Positions 54,654 through 64,000 of a stretch of 64,000 nt of DNA are shown here, one piece after another (positions within the stretch are counted from its first letter, which is position 1; each line of letters opens with the position of its first letter). A model generated the notes under the pieces. It was given only the letters and a program-made list of their open reading frames with translations. It did not search any database and was not told the origin of the DNA. Made by a program: the position numbers and the translations under genes. The stretch is from Choanephora cucurbitarum (taxonomy: Eukaryota; Mucoromycota; Mucoromycetes; Mucorales; Choanephoraceae), in assembly GCA_025331435.1 (NCBI GenBank), contig JAIWNI010000021.1, positions 294,548 through 358,547 of the forward strand, read 5' to 3'.

Positions 54654-55020
54654 TAAATAAACTCTTTAAATCTTTCTTATTCAAAAAACTTAACTTATAT
54701 CTCTTTTATTTACTTTACACTTGGTTGTACTTTGACATATATTTACTACCTAAATCCACTTATTTGATCAGTTCCCTTGATACTTATTACAGATCATTGT
54801 ACTCTTATATCACATATCTTTGTATTTGTTTACATTACTTTACTCTAAGGTTCGTTACCTAAACAACGTGGTGCTCATTACATATAACCTTGCTGCCTGA
54901 TTGCTCTGTTATATCTCTTTGATTCTCTTTTACAAGTTACTGCAAAAACTATCCTTTGTCCTGTAACACTATCCTTAGTCCTGAAACAACCTACACAGAA
55001 ACGTCTGACTAAAATATAAA

Positions 55021-55032: not shown

Positions 55033-55105
55033 TGAGGCTACCAGGGGTCGAACCTGGAATCTCCTGATTCGTAGTCAGACGCCTTATCCATTGGGCCATA
55101 GCCCC
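55033..55105 (-). tRNA. tRNA-Arg (anticodon ACG)
   Basis: 73-nt tRNA on the minus strand without intron. The acceptor stem pairs GGGGCTA with TAGCCTC (one G-U), discriminator A. The D arm starts GGCCCAATGG, the anticodon arm is CTGA-CTACGAA-TCAG with anticodon ACG, and the T arm is CCAGG-TTCGACC-CCTGG. It closely resembles fungal tRNA-Arg(ACG). A T-run terminator follows. Its 5' flank is the insertion site of two Ty3/gypsy elements, the nearest LTR starting 9 bp upstream. Confidence 0.97.
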
Positions 55106-55114
55106 TCAACTTAT

Positions 55115-55622
55115 TGTCGTCTTGTTATTCTTTTGTGGATGTTGCCAGTAGGTCACGTGACTATAGAACAAATTAGAGCCAATAAGGTTGCAGGAATAAG
55201 CTTCTAGAAGTAAGTGACGTAGACTGTGTATTATAATGTAAGTCTTTGATTTTATTTAATTTTTCCTTTTCTTTACTTTACCTGTGTATTATAATGTAAG
55301 TCTTTGATAAAGAGCTTATCATTACGAATATCACAGGTATTTATACTTTTCTAGACTACACTAAATATCTATTCTAAATCTAATAAAGAAGGAAGCAATT
55401 AATATCTACACGTCTGATTGATTATGTCTTGCTGATCCTAGAAGAGTCTTGGCTCCAGTTACGGGCACTTGCCTAAACCGTAATAGATTCAATCTCATCT
55501 TCTTCTTTCTTTTATTCAGAATCTGAGGCTTGAATCGTCGTTTGTTTGGATTGTACTGTTGAGGTAGATTGTACTCAACTTCGATAGGCTGTTTATGCTG
55601 TAAGTCGCTATTTTCTACGACA
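55115..55622 (-). repeat. 3' LTR of the intact Ty3/gypsy element
   Basis: 508 bp. Ends with inverted repeats TGTCGT/ACGACA. Contains a perfect palindromic E-box GTCACGTGAC (55152-55161) and a 27-bp direct repeat at 55224-55250 and 55282-55308 (beginning ctgtgtattataatgtaagt), 58 bp apart. The last 72 codons of pol plus stop (to 55406) lie inside it. The six differences from the 5' LTR cluster at 55350-55560. Confidence 0.95.
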
Positions 55623-58600
55623 TTACCCCCCTCCTGGATTGAAGTCCGTCTCTGGACAACAGAAGAAGTAGGCGAAGAAATAGGAAGGGTGACGCGAGTC
55701 GAGGTAGTAACAGAATCGGTGTGAGCAGGAAGCTGAATTTGTGTGGTCTTGTCGGGTGAAGGTTCAGAATCACTAAAGTCTTCAACATCAATATCAAAGT
55801 TGAACTCTGAGTCAGGCAAATCCCAAGCAGAAGGAGGGACGTCCTCATGTGCATCAACAAACAGTTCATCTTCATCAATCAAAGAAGGATTGTTATCAAT
55901 GGGTACAGACTCAATAACAGGAACAGACAAAGAAGGTGGAGAAGGACTGGTAGAAGTAGACAAGTCAACATTCGGACCCAAACGTGAATCAGTAAGTATA
56001 GGATCAACAACTATGCCAACTTCAACTGGATCTATCGGATCAACATCATCGATGGGATCATCAACTGTCACAGTAGGTAGAGGAACAGCAGACGCGAGAG
56101 GAACAGCAGATGCAACCGGATCGACAGAATCCACTGAATCAAGGTTGATATGGTCAGGCAGAGATAAGTCAGTTTCTTGAACATCAAACTGTGCAGGTGA
56201 AACTGGGACATCGACGGTTGATTCGTTATTGGCATCAACAGGCAGACTGACAGGGATGATTGCAGCACGGCCAATGTTGGTCATGACCTTACGCCAGTCT
56301 TGGCGGGCTACTACAGGATCATACCAAGGTTCATTGGAAGTATGGCCATTCGCAATACGTAGTCGATCCACATGTACCAATGACTTGACAGGCTCACCAG
56401 CAAGCGTTTGTAGCTTATAGGTACCATAGTCGGGGAAAGACTGTACAATTATGTAAGGACCTTTATATTGTGGCTCCAAACCATAGCGACCTTCATGGGT
56501 AAGCATGACTTTATCACCGATCTCAAAAGAGGTTTTCTTGATCTCAGAGTCCCATTTTTCTTTGTCTTTCTGTGCCATCGCTTTCATACGGAATTCGGCT
56601 GCAGCTCGATGTTGATCTAGTTCGCCTAATTCACGTGAAGTTATATCGGCTACCGTGCGAGGATCATCAAAGGTTTGCTTATCGATATAGGGTGTGAGTG
56701 AGTCGCCTGGAAGTCGAGGTTCTCGTCCATAAGTAAGGAAGAATGGACTGTACCCAGTAGTAGTATGTACCCTTATGCGAGAAGCCCAAAGTGCAGCATT
56801 AACGAAATCATCCCAACGATGTAGGGCACCATTTACATATTTACGAAGCATGCCCTTAATCACTGCATTGAAACGTTCGACCTTTGAATTCGTGCGAGGA
56901 TGGTATGCCGATGTCAGCTTGTGATGGGTCCCAACACGTTTGAGATACGCATTGACCAACTCACTGTTGAAGTTTGATCCACGATCTGTCAAAATTTCGG
57001 AAGGACAACCGAAACGCATCATTATCTCTTCGTAGATAAAATCGGCAATTGTTTCCTTTGTAGCAGCAGGTACAGCACGGGCAATAGGCCAATTAGTGGC
57101 GTAATCTACAGCCACAAGTAGCCAGCGATTTCCTTTTACCGTTAGTGGTAATTCTCCAATGAAGTCCAAGTGCCACCTATCAAAAGCAGCAGGTACCTTC
57201 AATGGATGCATAACGTCATGGTGAGTATGGCCTGGGCGTCGATTGATTTGGCATGATGGACAGGTTTTGAGCCATTCCTTTAAATCACGTTTCATACTAG
57301 GCCACCAAAAACGAGGCATAAAGATCTTTACCAAAGTTTCAAAACCAGCATGTCCGTTTGATTCATGGTAACGAGCCACCAAATCAGCACGGGAAGCAAA
57401 AGGGACAAAGGGAACAGGTTTCATGTTTTGCTTATCATCAACTGGCACTTTGCAATAAACTCGTCTATCTTGTACAACAAACCTGTCTTTTCGGTCATCC
57501 AAGTATTTGCGCAAAGCAGTTGATTTGACTCTTTCGACGTCCAAGTACAACATCGGCCAATCATTCTGTATAGATTCGGGAGCATCCTTCATGGTCCAGG
57601 TTGCATACAGAAATTCGGGTTCAAGGGAAGTAACAGCTGTTTCTGATTCTGGTCCACCAATCCTTGACAACACATCCGCTGCATTGTTCTCCTTACCAGG
57701 TTTGTACTCAATGGTAGGTGAGTAAAGTTCTAGTTCGTTCATCCAGCGGACTAATCTTGGACTCATTTTGTCTTGCGTTCTTAGGTAGCAGTTTGGCAGG
57801 TGATCGGTCAGAATTTTGTAACCGCCACTGCAACCATCCAAGAAACAGCGCCATGTTCGCAGAGCATGCAGAATTCCCATAAGCTCTCTCTCTTGTGCAG
57901 GGTAATTACGCTCTGCAGAGGAGAACTTTTTAGAGTCATATGCTACCGGATGCCAAGAAGGTGGATCATTGTCATCGGGTTGCAAAAGTACAGCTCCACA
58001 ACCAAAATCAGATGCGTCAGTTTCAACACGGAACGGCTTACTCATATTAGGAGGCTGGAGTACAGGCGCAGAGACCATCAGTTCTTTAATCTTCTCGAAA
58101 CTATTCTGACACTCCTTTGTCCAAACCACAGGACGTCGCTTGGGACCAGTACCCTTGGTTAGGTCGGTCAAAGGGGAGGCAATGGATGCAAATCCGGGGA
58201 TGAACCGACGATAATGTTGTGCGAGGCCAATAAACGAACGAACTTCTTGTACATTGGTGAGCACGGGCCAGGACTTTAAAGTCTCCACTTTGGAACGACT
58301 AGGTAGAATACCTTTATCAGTAATATCAAAACCAACGAAGGTTAATTCCCGCTTGCCAAACTCGCATTTCTTTCCATTGGCAATCAACTCAGCATCTTTC
58401 AATTTTTCCAGTACCATGCGGACATGTTGCTTGTGCTCTTCTAGAGACTTACTGAAGATCAATATATCATCTAAATACACTAAAGCAAACTTGTCGAGGT
58501 AATCGCCTAACACCTTGTTCATCAAACCCTGAAACGTGGGAGGAGCGTTTGTAAGGCCGAAAGGTAGAACTAGGAATTCAAATTGTCCATATCTAGTGTT

Positions 58601-59671
58601 GAATGCGGTTTTGGGTACATCGTCTGGATCAATCCTTACTTGATGATAGCCAGATTTTAAATCTAAGCTTGTGAAGTAGGTTGCACCTTGAAGGCGGTCC
58701 AAACATTCATCGATTCGTGGTAGAGGATGGTTGTTACGGATGGTCACACTATTCAATGCACGGTAGTCAATACACATCCGCATCTCTCCAGATTTCTTCT
58801 TCACAAATAGTACGGGTGCTCCCCAAGGTGATGCACTGGGTCGGATCAAGCCCAATTGCAATAGTTCCTTAATCTGTTTCTGCAATTCATCTAGTTCCGC
58901 GGGACTCATCTTAAAAGGAGGGCGATTGACAGGCTTGGCATCACCCGTATTGATGACATGTGTAACACCACGATCAGGTGGTAAACCAGGTAATTCACTT
59001 TTAAAAACCGTAGAAAATTCTTCTACCAGTTGATTCCAGTACTGATCGTTTTGAACAGAAGGGTGTTTTTCCTTAACTTCTGCGGCATTCAGATACAATA
59101 GGAAACTTTCAGCACCTCTACGAATACTCTTTTCTGCTTGTTTCTTAGAAATTAAGTAGTTCAACTGAGGGCGATCAGAGCGAGAACGGTTGAGAGGAGT
59201 CAGCTTGACCTTCTGTTTCTTATCTTTGCTTTGAATGTACCAAGTATCAGTAGACCATTCAGGTCGAGGGTCAACCTCTTTCAGCCATGTTCGTCCAAGG
59301 ATAACGTCAAACTTGGTAGGGAACACATAAGCAACTACCTTTGTCTTGAAACCTTTCAAGTCTAACATGACTTCGACCTTTTCTTTTATCTCTGTCACTT
59401 CTCCACCAGCGGTTTCAACTTGACGGTCATACACAGGAACAGAAGAGAGAGCATATTTTGCGACAATAGGCGAGACATAGTTCTCACTTGCTCCACTATC
59501 GATCAGCACGTCCAAAGAGGTATTACCCACAGAGCCCTGATACAGAGGTAGTTTGGTAGCTACCACATTGAGTTCAGACAGATACTGAAATTCCTCTTTT
59601 AGATCTTCATTAGGGTGGATAATAGGTACTAGTTCAGTAATCACACCAGTTGTCTGTTCTTCTTGTTCCAT
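55406..59671 (-). CDS. pol: Ty3/gypsy Pol polyprotein (PR-RT-RH-IN)
   Basis: 1421 residues from the first ATG, all domains uninterrupted. The aspartic protease has LIDSGASENYV (Asp58). The reverse transcriptase has LDLKSGYHQVRI and the catalytic YLDD (399-402). RNase H begins FRVETDASDFGCGAVL (547-562). Integrase has an H2C2 zinc finger (HESNGHAGF...CPSCQ) and the D,D-35-E core (WHLDFIGE, ILTDRGSNF, KVERFN), then a GPY/F module (YKGPYIIV); no chromodomain is present. A 280-residue acidic Asp/Pro/Val-rich disordered C-terminus follows. The frame crosses the polypurine tract and ends inside the LTR with a basic tail (NKRRFKPQILNKRKKKMRL). The frame is open upstream to about 59930, so translation may begin by a -1 shift from gag. 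Confidence 0.95.
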   Translation of the reverse strand: MEQEEQTTGVITELVPIIHPNEDLKEEFQYLSELNVVATKLPLYQGSVGNTSLDVLIDSGASENYVSPIVAKYALSSVPVYDRQVETAGGEVTEIKEKVEVMLDLKGFKTKVVAYVFPTKFDVILGRTWLKEVDPRPEWSTDTWYIQSKDKKQKVKLTPLNRSRSDRPQLNYLISKKQAEKSIRRGAESFLLYLNAAEVKEKHPSVQNDQYWNQLVEEFSTVFKSELPGLPPDRGVTHVINTGDAKPVNRPPFKMSPAELDELQKQIKELLQLGLIRPSASPWGAPVLFVKKKSGEMRMCIDYRALNSVTIRNNHPLPRIDECLDRLQGATYFTSLDLKSGYHQVRIDPDDVPKTAFNTRYGQFEFLVLPFGLTNAPPTFQGLMNKVLGDYLDKFALVYLDDILIFSKSLEEHKQHVRMVLEKLKDAELIANGKKCEFGKRELTFVGFDITDKGILPSRSKVETLKSWPVLTNVQEVRSFIGLAQHYRRFIPGFASIASPLTDLTKGTGPKRRPVVWTKECQNSFEKIKELMVSAPVLQPPNMSKPFRVETDASDFGCGAVLLQPDDNDPPSWHPVAYDSKKFSSAERNYPAQERELMGILHALRTWRCFLDGCSGGYKILTDHLPNCYLRTQDKMSPRLVRWMNELELYSPTIEYKPGKENNAADVLSRIGGPESETAVTSLEPEFLYATWTMKDAPESIQNDWPMLYLDVERVKSTALRKYLDDRKDRFVVQDRRVYCKVPVDDKQNMKPVPFVPFASRADLVARYHESNGHAGFETLVKIFMPRFWWPSMKRDLKEWLKTCPSCQINRRPGHTHHDVMHPLKVPAAFDRWHLDFIGELPLTVKGNRWLLVAVDYATNWPIARAVPAATKETIADFIYEEIMMRFGCPSEILTDRGSNFNSELVNAYLKRVGTHHKLTSAYHPRTNSKVERFNAVIKGMLRKYVNGALHRWDDFVNAALWASRIRVHTTTGYSPFFLTYGREPRLPGDSLTPYIDKQTFDDPRTVADITSRELGELDQHRAAAEFRMKAMAQKDKEKWDSEIKKTSFEIGDKVMLTHEGRYGLEPQYKGPYIIVQSFPDYGTYKLQTLAGEPVKSLVHVDRLRIANGHTSNEPWYDPVVARQDWRKVMTNIGRAAIIPVSLPVDANNESTVDVPVSPAQFDVQETDLSLPDHINLDSVDSVDPVASAVPLASAVPLPTVTVDDPIDDVDPIDPVEVGIVVDPILTDSRLGPNVDLSTSTSPSPPSLSVPVIESVPIDNNPSLIDEDELFVDAHEDVPPSAWDLPDSEFNFDIDVEDFSDSEPSPDKTTQIQLPAHTDSVTTSTRVTLPISSPTSSVVQRRTSIQEGGNVVENSDLQHKQPIEVEYNLPQQYNPNKRRFKPQILNKRKKKMRLNLLRFRQVPVTGAKTLLGSARHNQSDV
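55626..55634 (-). promoter_or_regulatory. Polypurine tract of the intact element
   Basis: On the minus strand GGAGGGGGG then TAA directly precedes the 3' LTR start TGTCGT. This primes plus-strand DNA synthesis. It is translated within the pol frame as part of EGGN. Confidence 0.85.
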
Positions 59672-59868
59672 TTCAGTATCGACTTCTTGGAGTACATCTT
59701 CGTCAGTCTCATTACTTTTATCATCACCACGTTCATCATTAGAATAGGGAGTACAATTATCAGTTTTATTCGTATAAGAACATGTACAGCGAGCTATCTG
59801 GGGAGTGTTCTGCGTAGGAAGATTTTCATTGTCTTTACCTAGTTGAGCTTCCTGGTCTTCAACTAGGT

Positions 59869-60699
59869 TTAGTGAAAATCCTGACGAGAGTCCTTGTTCA
59901 ATTCTTGGTAACGTTTTTGCTCCATTTGTCGAATGTCTTCAGTTCTGGTCTTACAAAAACGACGGACATGTCCCATCTTGCCACAATAATGACAACGCAC
60001 ATTAGATCGAGATCTAGATGTCATCGCACTCAGATCCATGGGTTCGCCGGCGTAAGGTCCCCTAGGGGTTGTAGGACGATGATCATTATAAGCGCCAGTG
60101 TTTCTTCTGTAGAAAGATGGATTCTCATGGATTGCGCTGTCATGAGCAATAGCAACACGAATGGCTTCCCTAAGGGTGATTGCTTGTGCTTGTCGTACTT
60201 GCGAACGGGTATCCTTGTTTGACAATCCACGCATAAATTTATCGCAGGTTTCATCTTCAGTGATTCCAGGTATGGCAGCGATAATATCCATGAATCCATT
60301 GACATAGTCGTTCAATGAACCCATTTGGCGGTAGGCAGCGAGTCTATCCCGAGCAAGACGTACAGCGTCATCAGGTCTGAAGAATTCAACGAGTTCTCTC
60401 TTCAAAGATACCCAATCCTGGGGTTCATCATCGGCAGTTTCCAATGTTCGATACCATGTATCTGCACGACCACGAAACAAAGTAACAGCATATCGTTTCT
60501 TCTCGACGGACGACCATCCTTGGAAATCAGTGTACCTTTCAAAAGTACGAATCCATGAATCGATTATCATGGCATCACGAGTACCATCATACGTAGGAGG
60601 TTCGGTTGTGCGGGGAACTCGAGCACCATTATTGTTAGCATTCAATGCTTTTGTAAATTCTTGTATCAACGAGATAATAGCGCTATTTTCACCAGACAT
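59869..60699 (-). CDS. gag: Ty3/gypsy Gag protein
   Basis: 276 residues. The capsid-type Retrotrans_gag region lies at about residues 35-180 (WIRTFERYTDFQGWSSVEKK, TLFRGRADTWYR, LNDYVNGFMDIIAAIPGI, KFMRGL). One CCHC zinc knuckle C-X2-C-X4-H-X4-C is CHYCGKMGHVRRFC near the C-terminus. It ends in a charged tail. The pol frame is -1 relative to gag; the two frames overlap from about 59930 to the gag stop, and pol's first ATG lies about 200 bp beyond that stop. Confidence 0.94.
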   Translation of the reverse strand: MSGENSAIISLIQEFTKALNANNNGARVPRTTEPPTYDGTRDAMIIDSWIRTFERYTDFQGWSSVEKKRYAVTLFRGRADTWYRTLETADDEPQDWVSLKRELVEFFRPDDAVRLARDRLAAYRQMGSLNDYVNGFMDIIAAIPGITEDETCDKFMRGLSNKDTRSQVRQAQAITLREAIRVAIAHDSAIHENPSFYRRNTGAYNDHRPTTPRGPYAGEPMDLSAMTSRSRSNVRCHYCGKMGHVRRFCKTRTEDIRQMEQKRYQELNKDSRQDFH

Positions 60700-60895
60700 A
60701 ACGATTACTTTCAGTTAACAGTAAAAACCAAATAGACAGCACACAGGCAAACAGTATTTCAGCACACAGGCAGTTAAAATTCAATACACAGATAAATAAA
60801 AATCAGCACGAAGGCAATTAGATCAGCACACAGGCAAAGTTTATACAGCACGGAGGCACAGGTAAGCTCCAGTAGGATTTTTCCTAGGATACGAC

Positions 60896-60909
60896 AGGAG
60901 ATGCTACCA
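60896..60909 (-). other. Primer-binding site of the intact element
   Basis: Read on the minus strand, TGGTAGCATCTCCT follows the 5' LTR end after a 2-nt gap. TGG pairs with the tRNA 3' CCA end. The implied primer tRNA ends AGGAGATGCTACCA; it is not the adjacent tRNA-Arg, whose end is TAGCCTCACCA. I could not assign the tRNA identity. Confidence 0.7.
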
Positions 60910-60911
60910 AT

Positions 60912-61419
60912 TGTCGTCTTGTTATTCTTTTGTGGATGTTGCCAGTAGGTCACGTGACTATAGAACAAATTAGAGCCAATAAGGTTGCAGGAATAAGCTT
61001 CTAGAAGTAAGTGACGTAGACTGTGTATTATAATGTAAGTCTTTGATTTTATTTAATTTTTCCTTTTCTTTACTTTACCTGTGTATTATAATGTAAGTCT
61101 TTGATAAAGAGCTTATCATTACGAATATCACAGGTATTTATACTTTTCTAAACTACACTAAATATTTATTCTAAATCTAATAAAGAAGGAAGCAATTAAT
61201 ATCTACACGTCTGATTAATTATGTCTTGCTGATCCTAGAAGAGTCTTGGCTCCAGTTACGGGCACTTGCCTAAACCGTAATAGATTCAATCTCATCTTTT
61301 TCATTCTTTTATTCAGAATCTGAGGCTTGAATCGTCGTTTGTTTGGATTGTACTATTGAGGTAGATTGTACTCAACTTCGATAGGCTGTTTATGCTGTAA
61401 GTCGCTATTTTCTACGACA
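60912..61419 (-). repeat. 5' LTR of the intact Ty3/gypsy element
   Basis: 508 bp; carries the same E-box palindrome (60949-60958) and 27-bp repeats (61021-61047, 61079-61105) as the 3' copy. It should hold the element promoter. Confidence 0.95.
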
Positions 61420-61423
61420 ATTA

Positions 61424-61805
61424 TGTCAATCACATATCAGTACTCGTGCTTGTAAATTCAACTCTCTGTCACTACAATCAATAGAATTTCTCCTACGACT
61501 CATCCACATTTTTAAAGATGCTCTTTATTTATATGAATAAATATGAATTATGTTACCTGTAATATAGAGATATTAAAAGATAAAGATCTTTCAATATCTA
61601 TATTACAGCCTTTTTATATTATTCTAAAACGAGTCCGGACCGGACCGACGCTGTCGCTTTGCCGGGCTGTTTACTGCAAGGCTTGGGCTTGAACTTACGT
61701 TTCTTGTTCGCATTCCAGTTGCGTAGAAACGCAGGGATCTCTTCAGTATTGGCGAAGTCCAAATTTACTTGGTTGCTAAGGCCACCTTCATTTGTCGCCA
61801 TGACA
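61424..61805 (-). repeat. 3' LTR of the decayed element
   Basis: Bounded by TGTCA at 61424 and TGACA at 61801-61805. On the minus strand it is preceded by AGAGGGGGGATAA, a polypurine tract equivalent to that of the intact element. About 382 bp and otherwise unrelated in sequence to the 508-bp LTR. Only 4 bp separate it from the intact element's LTR. Confidence 0.75.
61556..61608. repeat. Imperfect hairpin in the decayed element's LTR
   Basis: Arm ctgtaatatagagatatt (from 61557) is complementary to aatatctatattacag (to 61608) apart from a 2-nt bulge; a loop of about 18 nt contains its own small palindrome aaagatcttt. Confidence 0.8.
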
Positions 61806-61858
61806 TTATCCCCCCTCTTGACCGCTTGTTCGTCTCTGAACAACTTCATGTTCTGCAA
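61619..61858 (-). pseudogene. Pol C-terminal fragment crossing into the LTR (decayed element)
   Basis: 79-codon open frame spanning the polypurine tract (near 61810) and ending at 61619 inside the LTR. Its basic stretch NKKRKFKPKP parallels NKRRFKPQIL at the same place in the intact element. Upstream continuation is frame-broken. Confidence 0.7.
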
Positions 61859-62466
61859 AAGGTTTTGAGATGGTGCTGGGGTGGCGGTGGACTAACATCG
61901 CTTGGTAAGATGGTTGATGGGGCAGTCAACAACAAGGGGCTGGTATGTGTGATGGTAGGCAGTGTTGCAGATGAGGCAGCCGGTGATGAAGTGACATCGA
62001 TCACTTCAACTTGAACATCTGAAGTCGGCAAACTAGCAGGCAGAGGTGATGGATGAGAATCAATGTCCTCATGGGATGATGATGGCTCGTTCAATGACAC
62101 AGATGTCGTAGAGGTCATGTTGACTTCCACTGATTGTTGGTAGACATCAAGTTACAGCTTGATCATGGCCTTGACGAGGGACAACTTGATTGTTAGAGCC
62201 TACATGTTGATGATGGGCTGGCTATAGAGACAAGAAGATCTGTTTGCTTGTTCATCGGACATGTCTTGTACATCTTGATCTGAATCGCTTGTTGATGAGA
62301 CTTCTTGAATTTCAGTATCACGTACAAAGTCAGAAATATCGATGCGTTCATCCACCGTATCCGATGGGTCTTGATTATTTACCTCAGATGCTGAAGACAA
62401 CACATAGGTGAGGCAGTGTCTGATTTTTCAGAGGCTGATGATGATGAGCTCGGTGGTAGTACACTT

Positions 62467-63201
62467 TCATCGCTTTGTATCCGATCTGCTGTCACTTGAC
62501 ACACCAATCACTTCCATGGATGGAAGTCGATGTACTTCAAGACTTATAGACGCAGGTATTTGGGGTGTAAGACTGGAAGCAGAGACTTCAGATATACGCG
62601 CAGAGCTAATGGTGAGATTACTAGCTACTGTCTGAAGGCTATCATCGTCTTTAGCTTCATCTTCTTGATTTGTGATGTCTGGTTTGATTTCTTCATTCCC
62701 ATCTGAGTTATCGTTCATGTTGATATCTTGATCATTTGCTCGGCTATCCTCGTTTACGATACTATGACACAAGGAGATAATGTCTTCATCGGTTAGCGAG
62801 AGGATGTCATTGTTACTGCCATTGTCTGATCGCCTGTCATCAACTTGAGGGAGTGTTGGTATCTTGATTGTCTCAGGACCTATCAATGGTGGTGGTATAT
62901 GCATAGGTGGTTGTATGTCAATAGGTGGTGGTGACAGACTTGCTTGGCGTGGCATGGGCATGAAAGCGGAGGAAACCATCACCCGAAACAGAGGAACTAA
63001 CAGGGGCAATGGGGTCAACATAGTCTTTGTTGAAGACTTGTATCCTTTAGTGTCTCCCTTACGATCCTGCGAGAAGCAGTGGGGGTCATACCAGGGTGTA
63101 ATAGGCTTTTCGCCTTCAGCTGCCTTCAAGCCTATCGACATGTACCAATTATTTAGAGGCCTCACCAGACATTGTCTCCAGTCTGTAGGTACCGTATGCA
63201 A
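62467..63201 (-). pseudogene. Pol disordered C-terminal region of decayed element
   Basis: 244-codon frame. It begins in the region after the GPY/F block with TPWYDP, matching EPWYDP of the intact Pol, then continues as an acidic Ser/Asp/Pro-rich region like its counterpart. The frame ends at 62467 and resumes in other frames (62200-62403, 61846-62130), consistent with frameshift decay. Confidence 0.7.
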
Positions 63202-64000
63202 GGGTACGCAGCAACAACCATGTAAGGTCCCGTTAACCTAGGTTCAAGACCGTACCGTCCTTCATGTGATAACATCACCAGGTCACCGGGTTCAAACGAG
63301 ACTTTCTTAATGTGAGCATCCCACCTTTTCTTATCCTTGTTCGCTATTGCCCTTTAACCTGAACTCTGCGCCGCTCTGTGGTTGGCCTAATTCCTCAAGC
63401 TCACGCGAGGGTGATATTCGGCAATGGTGCGGGGATCTGCTTTGGCTGCACGATCAGATACGCTGTATCTCATCTCCAGGTAGGCGTGGTTCACGACCGT
63501 AGACTAAATAGAATGGTGAGTACCCTGTGGGTACTATGCTTGCGAACTCGTGTGGCCCACAAAGCAGCTTGAACGAAGTCATCCCATCTATGAATGGCAC
63601 CATTCGCATACTTTCTTAGCATTGTTGATTATTCCGTATAACGTTCGACCTTGCTATTCGTGCGAGGGGTGAAAGGGCTGATGTCAACTTATGATTGAAC
63701 ACTACGCGCCTCAGATAGGCTTCTACCATACCACTGGTGAAGTTTGCTCCCGGTCAGTAACTATTTCGGCAGGACAACCAAACTCCTCATCACAATACTC
63801 CTTCATAGATTGAAGTCCGGCTACGACCTCCTGCGACAGCTACAGGTACAGCTTTGGCAATTAGGCCATTTAGTGGAGCGAGTCTACAGCGGTAAAGTAA
63901 CCACTTTAATTGTCCATTGATGGTAGTGGGCAGTTCCCCCACCAAAGTCAAGATGCCAACGTCAAAAGCCTTAGGGACAGGGAGTGGATGCATCATCGTG
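63202..64000 (-). pseudogene. Integrase region of decayed element, multiply frameshifted
   Basis: Short matches to integrase in shifting frames: the post-GPY region WDAHIKK and EGRYGLEP, a middle segment aligned with AALWA.R...YSPF, and the HPLPVPKAFD start at the right edge. Single-base losses recur every 50-100 bp. No intact catalytic core is present. Confidence 0.75.

What the first reader, a model, noticed from the sequence alone, without database searches (positions are those of the whole stretch)
55033..61805. Two different Ty3/gypsy elements stacked at one position upstream of a tRNA-Arg gene
The intact element begins 9 bp upstream of the mature 5' end of tRNA-Arg(ACG). If it is removed, the LTR of the second, older and unrelated element starts about 8 bp from the same end, in the same orientation (3' LTR nearest the tRNA). 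Two insertions at nearly one base argue strongly for targeting to the Pol III start, as known for yeast Ty3 through TFIIIB, but in a fungus that appears far from yeast. The 5-bp flanks (CTTAT/ATTAT) also fit Ty3.
Basis: partly seen in the sequence, partly recalled or inferred. Interest (0 to 1): 0.85.

Follow-up and report, generated by a model that had tools for sequence, protein, structure and literature searches.

The report
Retrotransposons targeting tRNA genes, carrying spares
In a mould of the Choanephora kind, families of jumping elements land about nine bases in front of tRNA genes, and most of these families carry in their own end a copy of the short DNA signal that they push away from the gene, at the distance where the gene normally has it; whether that copy works is untested.

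Summary
An intact Ty3/gypsy element (55115-61419) ends 9 bp from the 5' end of tRNA-Arg; behind it an older LTR would lie 8 bp away. Ty3-type integrases lie within 6 kb upstream of 11 of 53 tRNAs, downstream of 1. Targeting to the Pol III start is the clear reading; it is a known behaviour (Ty3, Tj1, DGLT-A), and Ty3/tRNA co-localisation is in print for Rhizopus. Unexpected: tRNA genes here carry CACGTG or CCGG at -50..-66 (33 of 41 without such a repeat end). Insertion cuts the gene off from it; the displaced copy sits 41-58 bp beyond the far end in 6 of 7 unstacked insertions, or 6 of 10 counting three set aside as stacked. Families F1, FX and FY carry the motif in the tRNA-facing end at -53..-64 (11 of 11); F2 does not. 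I infer that these LTRs replace the displaced signal. Corrections: 4-bp, not 5-bp, duplications; no chromodomain detected.

The parts
55033..55105 (-). tRNA-Arg(ACG) gene, the target
   Evidence: ARAGORN; Rfam RF00005 59.7 bits
55106..55114 (.). 9 bp between tRNA 5' end and LTR edge, including the target-site duplication TTAT
55115..55622 (-). 3' LTR of the intact F1 element, tRNA-proximal; TGTC...GACA
55154..55159 (.). CACGTG in the tRNA-proximal LTR end, at -54 of the tRNA; core of GTCACGTGACT, invariant in 13 of 13 aligned F1-clade LTR ends
55179..55183 (.). CCAAT (ATTGG in tRNA sense, at -78), invariant in 13 of 13 LTR ends; ATTGG also lies 18-25 bp from CACGTG at 8 of 25 native tRNA genes with CACGTG
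55623..55634 (-). polypurine tract next to the 3' LTR
55406..59938 (-). pol open frame (protease, RT, RNase H, integrase; 1510 aa stop to stop, first ATG 59671); last about 215 nt inside the 3' LTR; no chromodomain found
59869..60699 (-). gag ORF (Retrotrans_gag, Ty3_capsid); overlaps the pol frame, offset of the -1 type
60895..60909 (-). primer-binding site TGGTAGC..., 2 nt inside the 5' LTR; initiator-Met type is recalled, not tested
60912..61419 (-). 5' LTR of the intact F1 element, distal to the tRNA
61424..61805 (-). LTR of the older F2 element; 8 bp from the tRNA in the pre-insertion layout
61806..64000 (-). start (3' side) of the F2 body, cut by the contig end
54846..54976 (-). repeat 57 bp downstream of the tRNA (separate observation); 43 genomic matches, 27 near and downstream of listed tRNAs

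Best explanation
F1 is a Ty3/gypsy retrotransposon whose integrase complex is tethered to the Pol III initiation complex, so that it integrates 8-11 bp upstream of the mature tRNA end, with 4-bp duplications. F2 and the LTR family FX do the same, and so most likely does FY. New insertions go between the tRNA and older ones, which gives stacks. SHOWN by sequence: the positions, the stacking, the 4-bp duplications at five other loci, and CACGTG or CCGG at -50..-66 of most native tRNA genes. Also shown: insertion separates this motif from the tRNA, and F1, FX and FY carry CACGTG or CCGG in the tRNA-facing end at the native distance. INFERRED: that the tether is TFIIIB, that the motif is an upstream promoter element, and that the LTR copy takes over its job so that the insertion is nearly harmless.
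For: Gaps 8-11 bp at 12 of 53 tRNAs. Integrases within 6 kb: 11 of 53 upstream, 1 of 53 downstream (Fisher 0.0039, about 1.4 expected). FX: 6 matches = 3 insertions at three different tRNAs plus 1 fragment; FY: 3 of 3 matches at tRNAs. F1 borders an F2 LTR at Arg, Pro and C211. LTR pairs differ by 0/508, 0/518, 0/485 and 0/518 (F1) and 1/298 (F2; part of the LTR), so insertions are recent. CACGTG at -66..-50 in 25 of 41 tRNAs without such a repeat end (circular-shift mean 2.4; 0 of 10,000 reach it), CCGG in 14 of 41 (mean 3.1), either in 33 of 41, or 31 of 38 after removing near-identical copies; mirrored downstream window 0 of 33. LTR copies: F1 CACGTG 5 of 5 (-53..-56), FX CCGG 3 of 3, FY CCGG 3 of 3. 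Displaced native motif 41-58 bp beyond the distal edge: Leu, Asn, His, Ser, C326, C235; none of these six flanks matches the LTR library. GTCACGTGACT is the longest invariant run in 13 aligned F1-clade LTR ends, which are not all independent. F1 Pol's best solved relative is Ty3 (7q5b, E 4.6e-118).
Against: F2 carries no such motif (0 of 1). 8 of 41 tRNAs have neither motif in the window. One F1 insertion (C251, L014) has the motif end facing away. C221 and C39 insertions show no Pol III gene. C29's displaced CCGG lies at 64, outside 41-58. C250, C41 and C221, set aside because their far flank begins like another LTR (by eye; C221 also a 43-bp match), show no displaced motif in 90 bp; with them the count is 6 of 10. 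39 of 71 listed GTCACGTGAY sites are at neither a listed tRNA nor an F1 LTR. FY is a repeat end; that it is an LTR was not shown. No expression data.
Confidence: 0.68

Rival explanations
1. Targeting is real, but CACGTG and CCAAT in the F1 LTR are only the element's own Pol II promoter; the match to the tRNA motif is coincidence or shared use of a common host factor.
For: CCAAT, TTCTAGAAG and TGACG blocks are conserved beside it, as in a Pol II promoter; GTCACGTGAY also occurs elsewhere (39 of 71 listed sites).
Against: Three families carry one or the other of the two native tRNA motif types at the native distance, and the motif end faces the tRNA in 11 of 11. Dual use is not excluded.
Confidence: 0.3
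2. The 'native' CACGTG and CCGG motifs are themselves worn ends of older LTRs, so the LTR explains the tRNA motif and not the reverse.
For: Stacking is common; native and LTR regions share motif and spacing; 8 of 25 native regions also have ATTGG at a similar spacing. Four weak alignments between native regions (43-59 bp, 66-72%) end between -9 and -18, where LTRs end.
Against: Three of those four alignments begin within a few bases of the motif and none reaches beyond -76, whereas LTR remnants should run on upstream. Against the LTR library the 41 native regions give only 16-29-bp matches, in 6 of 41. The displaced flanks at Leu, Asn, His, Ser, C326 and C235 give none.
Confidence: 0.1
3. No targeting: insertions are random and only those beside tRNA genes survive selection.
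For: Compact genome; orientation is biased.
Against: Base-level precision; LTR pairs with 0-1 differences leave little time for purging; 139 of 150 scored Ty3-type integrases are not within 6 kb upstream of a listed tRNA, among them all ten matches of 75.9 bits, probably one family.
Confidence: 0.05
4. The second stack (C268 Pro) is a segmental duplication or assembly copy of the window locus.
For: Proximal LTRs of the Arg and Pro loci differ at 1 of 508.
Against: Different tRNAs, different flanks (TCAACTTAT against TCTGATGACGG), its own ACGG duplication, and different F2 LTR ends.
Confidence: 0.02

Closest known systems
Ty3 (Saccharomyces cerevisiae)
   Same: Ty3/gypsy order RT-RNaseH-IN; integration at the Pol III start (review PMC5911963, passages read); F1 Pol matches Ty3 Pol over residues 216-1081; long helix between core and C-terminal barrel in the IN model
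   Different: 4-bp instead of 5-bp duplications; no chromodomain detected, whereas Ty3's contacts Brf1 (PMC8632968, passages read); gag-pol offset of the -1 type instead of +1; LTR carries the target's upstream motif
Tj1 (Schizosaccharomyces japonicus)
   Same: 5-11 bp upstream of mature tRNAs and fixed orientation with the target, mostly as F1 (PMC4600332, passages and Discussion read)
   Different: 5-bp duplications; its authors note that insertion between an upstream TATA and the start would very likely disrupt the promoter and that S. japonicus tRNA genes appear to lack it; here the elements insert between an upstream motif and the gene
DGLT-A (dictyostelids)
   Same: Ty3/gypsy, no chromodomain, PBS 2 bp inside the LTR, upstream of tRNAs (PMC5006619, passages read)
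   Different: 13-33 bp upstream (mean 15 bp in D. discoideum), either orientation; host far away
Ty3/gypsy elements of Rhizopus oryzae
   Same: Same fungal order; 'often co-localizing with tRNA genes' (PMC2699053, passages read); Rhizopus proteins are among the closest integrase relatives
   Different: The passages seen give no base-level position, motif or orientation; its Figure S1 was not seen

Membership tests
Ty3/gypsy (Metaviridae) | pol order protease-RT-RNaseH-integrase, LTRs TG...CA, PBS and PPT | tested here: met
Ty3/gypsy (Metaviridae) | gag capsid of Ty3 type | tested here: met
   Ty3_capsid 1.2e-7, Retrotrans_gag 2.8e-13
Ty3-type Pol III targeting | insertion within a few bp of the Pol III start at many tRNA genes | tested here: met
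   12 of 53 tRNAs, 8-11 bp from the mature end; the start site itself was not mapped
Ty3-type Pol III targeting | 5-bp target duplication | tested here: not met
   exact 4 bp at 5 loci, shifted 4 bp in the window, none exact at Asn, His and C221
Ty3-type Pol III targeting | integrase chromodomain that contacts Brf1 | tested here: not met
   Pfam to E 10 lists none; the ordered part of the IN model ends at residue 398; confidence beyond is low, so a very diverged one is not excluded
Ty3-type Pol III targeting | dependence on TFIIIB (Brf1, TBP) | not testable with these tools
   needs biochemistry
Tj1-type targeting | element always in the orientation of the target gene | tested here: inconclusive
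   F1: 8 with the target (3 of them at interrupted or degenerate tRNAs), 1 reverse (C251); FX 3 of 3 against the tRNA; F2 both ways
DGLT-A | 13-33 bp upstream, either orientation | tested here: not met
   8-11 bp

The most novel reading that the evidence does not exclude
tRNA-targeting retrotransposons of Mucorales evolved LTR ends that mimic the upstream promoter of their targets: they cut the tRNA gene off from its upstream element but hand it a working copy at the same distance. Three families did this, with two different motifs.
Probability: 0.5. Interest if true: 0.85.

Novelty: new variant of a known kind. Interest (0 to 1): 0.7.

Why it matters
Harmless targeting upstream of tRNA genes is usually explained by their promoters being internal. 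Here tRNA genes seem to have an external element as well, and the elements land between it and the gene. LTRs that bring the element along would be a second way to be harmless, and one that can be tested directly. It also suggests that tRNA genes of this mould share two upstream signals (CACGTG, CCGG), and that an integrase without a detectable chromodomain can find the Pol III start.

Tried and rejected
5S rRNA as a second target: no 5S match in the genome search (47 of 616 candidates scored), so not testable. Relatives in viral contigs and genome contigs: none, so the -55 motif could not be checked in other Mucorales. Rfam at E 0.01 on 40 of the 50 loci brought in by the two LTR searches found no Pol III gene besides tRNAs. 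FX distal flanks: the stretches fetched were identical in both copies and so probably still inside the LTR. C329, C330, C292:387721 and C80 elements lie within 6 kb upstream of tRNAs, but I saw no LTR edge at the tRNA, so they are not counted as targeted. The tRNA list is incomplete: 63 of 1531 candidates scored, and a tRNA-Glu outside the list turned up. C219 (31.5 bits) may be a pseudogene and was kept in all counts.
Full report
WHAT IS THERE. The window is the end of contig C124 of a 33.4-Mb genome in 357 contigs. A host protein is 97% identical to one of Choanephora cucurbitarum, so the organism is that mould or a close relative (Mucorales). tRNA-Arg(ACG) lies at 55033-55105 on the minus strand. 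An element of 6305 bp lies 9 bp upstream of it: LTRs of 508 bp with 6 differences, gag with a Ty3-type capsid match, a pol frame with RT, RNase H and integrase, PBS and PPT. Its sense is that of the tRNA. Beyond it comes the LTR of a second family, F2, which would lie 8 bp from the tRNA without the first element.

I searched the genome with both LTRs (44 matches; 20), with the tRNA family (53 tRNAs, 63 of 1531 candidates scored) and with the Ty3-type integrase zinc domain (150 of 202 candidates scored, 150 matches). Integrases lie within 6 kb upstream of 11 of 53 tRNAs and downstream of 1 of 53 (about 1.4 expected). I read the upstream side of all 53, 200 bp or more each, and compared them with each other. 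Four repeat families end at the same place: F1 at Arg, Pro, Asn, Leu and His; F2 at Ser; FX at three different tRNAs; FY at three different tRNAs. The gaps are 9, 11, 10, 9, 8; 10; 8, 11, 8; 10, 8, 8 bp (edges set at the terminal CA). FX and FY were found from the tRNA side, so I searched the genome with their ends: FX gives 6 matches (two pairs, one single, one fragment; the three insertions other than the fragment are all at tRNAs), FY gives 3 matches, all at tRNAs. FX pairs enclose Ty3-type integrases; FY was not shown to be an LTR.

COPIES THAT DO NOT FIT, AND STACKS. Of 12 F1-clade insertions with a readable tRNA-side edge, 5 face intact tRNAs. 2 (C235, C251) face tRNA heads interrupted by a LINE; the C251 head equals the first 15 bases of tRNA-Lys, the C235 head is judged by eye. 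1 (C211) faces a tRNA-Asp-like stretch, by eye only, not called by Rfam. 1 (C251, L014) sits in reverse, 6 bp plus duplication from where the tRNA-Lys head begins in the matching flank; the tRNA side is beyond the contig end. 1 (C326) is stacked behind another element. 2 (C221; C39, whose three copies appear to be one duplicated unit) face nothing recognisable. F2: Ser; a sequence with A- and B-box-like parts at C29 (9 bp), which Rfam does not call; behind F1 at Arg and Pro; behind F1 in opposite orientation at C211; several of the other fragments seem to abut further LTR-like ends, which I did not test. F1 lies directly against an F2 LTR at Arg (as in the finding), Pro and C211 (the last two by alignment).

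AGE AND MECHANISM. LTR pairs differ by 0/508 (Pro), 0/518 (outer LTRs of the Leu array), 0/485 (Asn, part of the LTR), 0/518 (C211), 1/298 (Ser, F2, part) and 6/508 in the window, so these insertions are recent and long purging is unlikely to explain the pattern. 139 of 150 scored integrase sites are not within 6 kb upstream of a listed tRNA, among them all ten matches of 75.9 bits, probably one family, so other Ty3 elements of the same genome seem to behave differently; I did not sort all 150 into families. The F1 integrase model has a zinc domain, catalytic core, long linker helix, C-terminal barrel and one more helix, then about 250 low-confidence residues and a basic tail partly encoded in the LTR. 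A chromodomain is not found by Pfam nor in the model; chromodomains occur with other integrases of this genome, and none of the 70 matches lies by the F1, F2 (C294) or FX integrases at the tRNAs. Foldseek ranks foamy-virus integrase first and Ty3 ninth; the model is weak overall (mean pLDDT 60.6), and I rely on the sequence match to Ty3. TFIIIB tethering is inferred from Ty3.

THE MOTIF. 25 of 41 tRNAs without a repeat end at 8-11 bp have CACGTG between -66 and -50 (2.4 expected by circular shift, 0 of 10,000 shifts reach it), 14 of 41 have CCGG there (3.1 expected), 33 of 41 have either; 31 of 38 after removing near-identical copies; 0 of 33 in the mirrored downstream window. The whole-genome count of GTCACGTGAY is 97/98 on the two strands against 19/23 for the reversed pattern; of the 71 distinct sites in the listed part, 20 are in F1 LTRs, 12 at -51..-64 of tRNAs, and 39 elsewhere. 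The eight tRNAs without either motif in the window are two with a LINE directly upstream, one duplicated tRNA-Arg pair, two with CACGTG further out (-77, -96), one with CCGG at -70, and the doubtful C219.

DISPLACEMENT AND REPLACEMENT. An insertion at -10 must push a motif at -55 to about 45 bp beyond the element's far end. That is found at Leu 42/58, Asn 43, His 43, Ser 41/52, C326 44/53 (the Pol III gene of C326 is beyond the contig) and C235 51; C29 has CCGG at 64. None of the six flanks matches the LTR library. Five more flanks show no motif in 90 bp: Pro and C211 border an F2 LTR, and C221, C250 and C41 were set aside because they begin like another LTR (by eye; C221 also by a 43-bp match). 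So the count is 6 of 7, or 6 of 10 with those three. At these loci the native motif was there before and is now 0.5-18 kb away. F1 LTRs carry CACGTG at -53..-56 (5 of 5), FX CCGG at -61..-64 (3 of 3), FY CCGG-type motifs at -53..-60 (3 of 3); F2 has none (0 of 1). The motif end faces the tRNA in 11 of 11 of these, although F1 reads with the tRNA and FX against it; with the C235, C251 and C211 copies and the reverse C251 copy it is 14 of 15 (counted; binomial). In 13 aligned F1-clade LTR ends (mean column identity 79%) GTCACGTGACT is the longest invariant run. Against the same library the 41 native upstream regions give only 16-29-bp matches, in 6 of 41. The function is inferred.

COMPARISON. 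A review lists Ty3, Tj1, Beta/Tca8, Tyl3, Ylt1, Tyl6 and DGLT-A upstream of tRNA genes and Skipper-2 downstream (PMC5911963, passages). Tj1's authors say that insertion between an upstream TATA and the start would very likely disrupt the promoter (PMC4600332, Discussion). The Rhizopus genome paper reports that Ty3 elements often co-localise with tRNA genes (PMC2699053, passages). My searches (listings only, apart from the papers named as read) listed no paper that by title or abstract start describes a CACGTG or CCGG motif upstream of fungal tRNA genes, or an LTR that supplies such a motif; papers on TATA-like upstream boxes of Pol III genes are listed (for example PMC7279448). Most papers of subscription journals are not in that library.

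VERDICT.

Noticed in passing
window 54846-54976; loci L057, L059, L061, L067, L075 and others: A repeat of about 90-130 bp lies downstream of tRNA genes: 27 of 43 genomic matches (40 of 55 candidates scored) are downstream of one of the 53 listed tRNAs (37-148 bp, one at 668), none upstream within 1500 bp, all 27 in one orientation. Possibly a tRNA-downstream-targeting retroposon, as TRE3 in Dictyostelium.
   Followed up: partly
L057:1355-2999; L004 and L026 flanks; L078: A LINE (RVT_1 9e-9) inserted inside tRNA genes after GCTCAG in the A box (3 junctions, not all independent), in L057 with duplication of tRNA bases 1-14, so that a whole tRNA gene is regenerated at the LINE's 5' end (tRNA-Lys on C294; tRNA-Ala on C19 abuts the LINE at +1).
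   Followed up: partly
G000:C124:42188-60400: Array of four LTRs spaced 5.9 kb with shared LTRs (three internal parts) ending 9 bp from tRNA-Leu; outer LTRs identical.
   Followed up: no
G000:C39:22681-64315: Three F1-related elements in a repeated unit of about 17.4 kb; no Pol III gene recognised at the edge.
   Followed up: no
about +15 to +40 downstream of many tRNAs (listing): GTTACATGT recurs shortly after the T-run in many tRNA genes; not counted.
   Followed up: no
L061, L062, L063, L014, L057: tRNA-Ile and tRNA-Lys loci share more than a kilobase of upstream flank at 86-92% identity.
   Followed up: no
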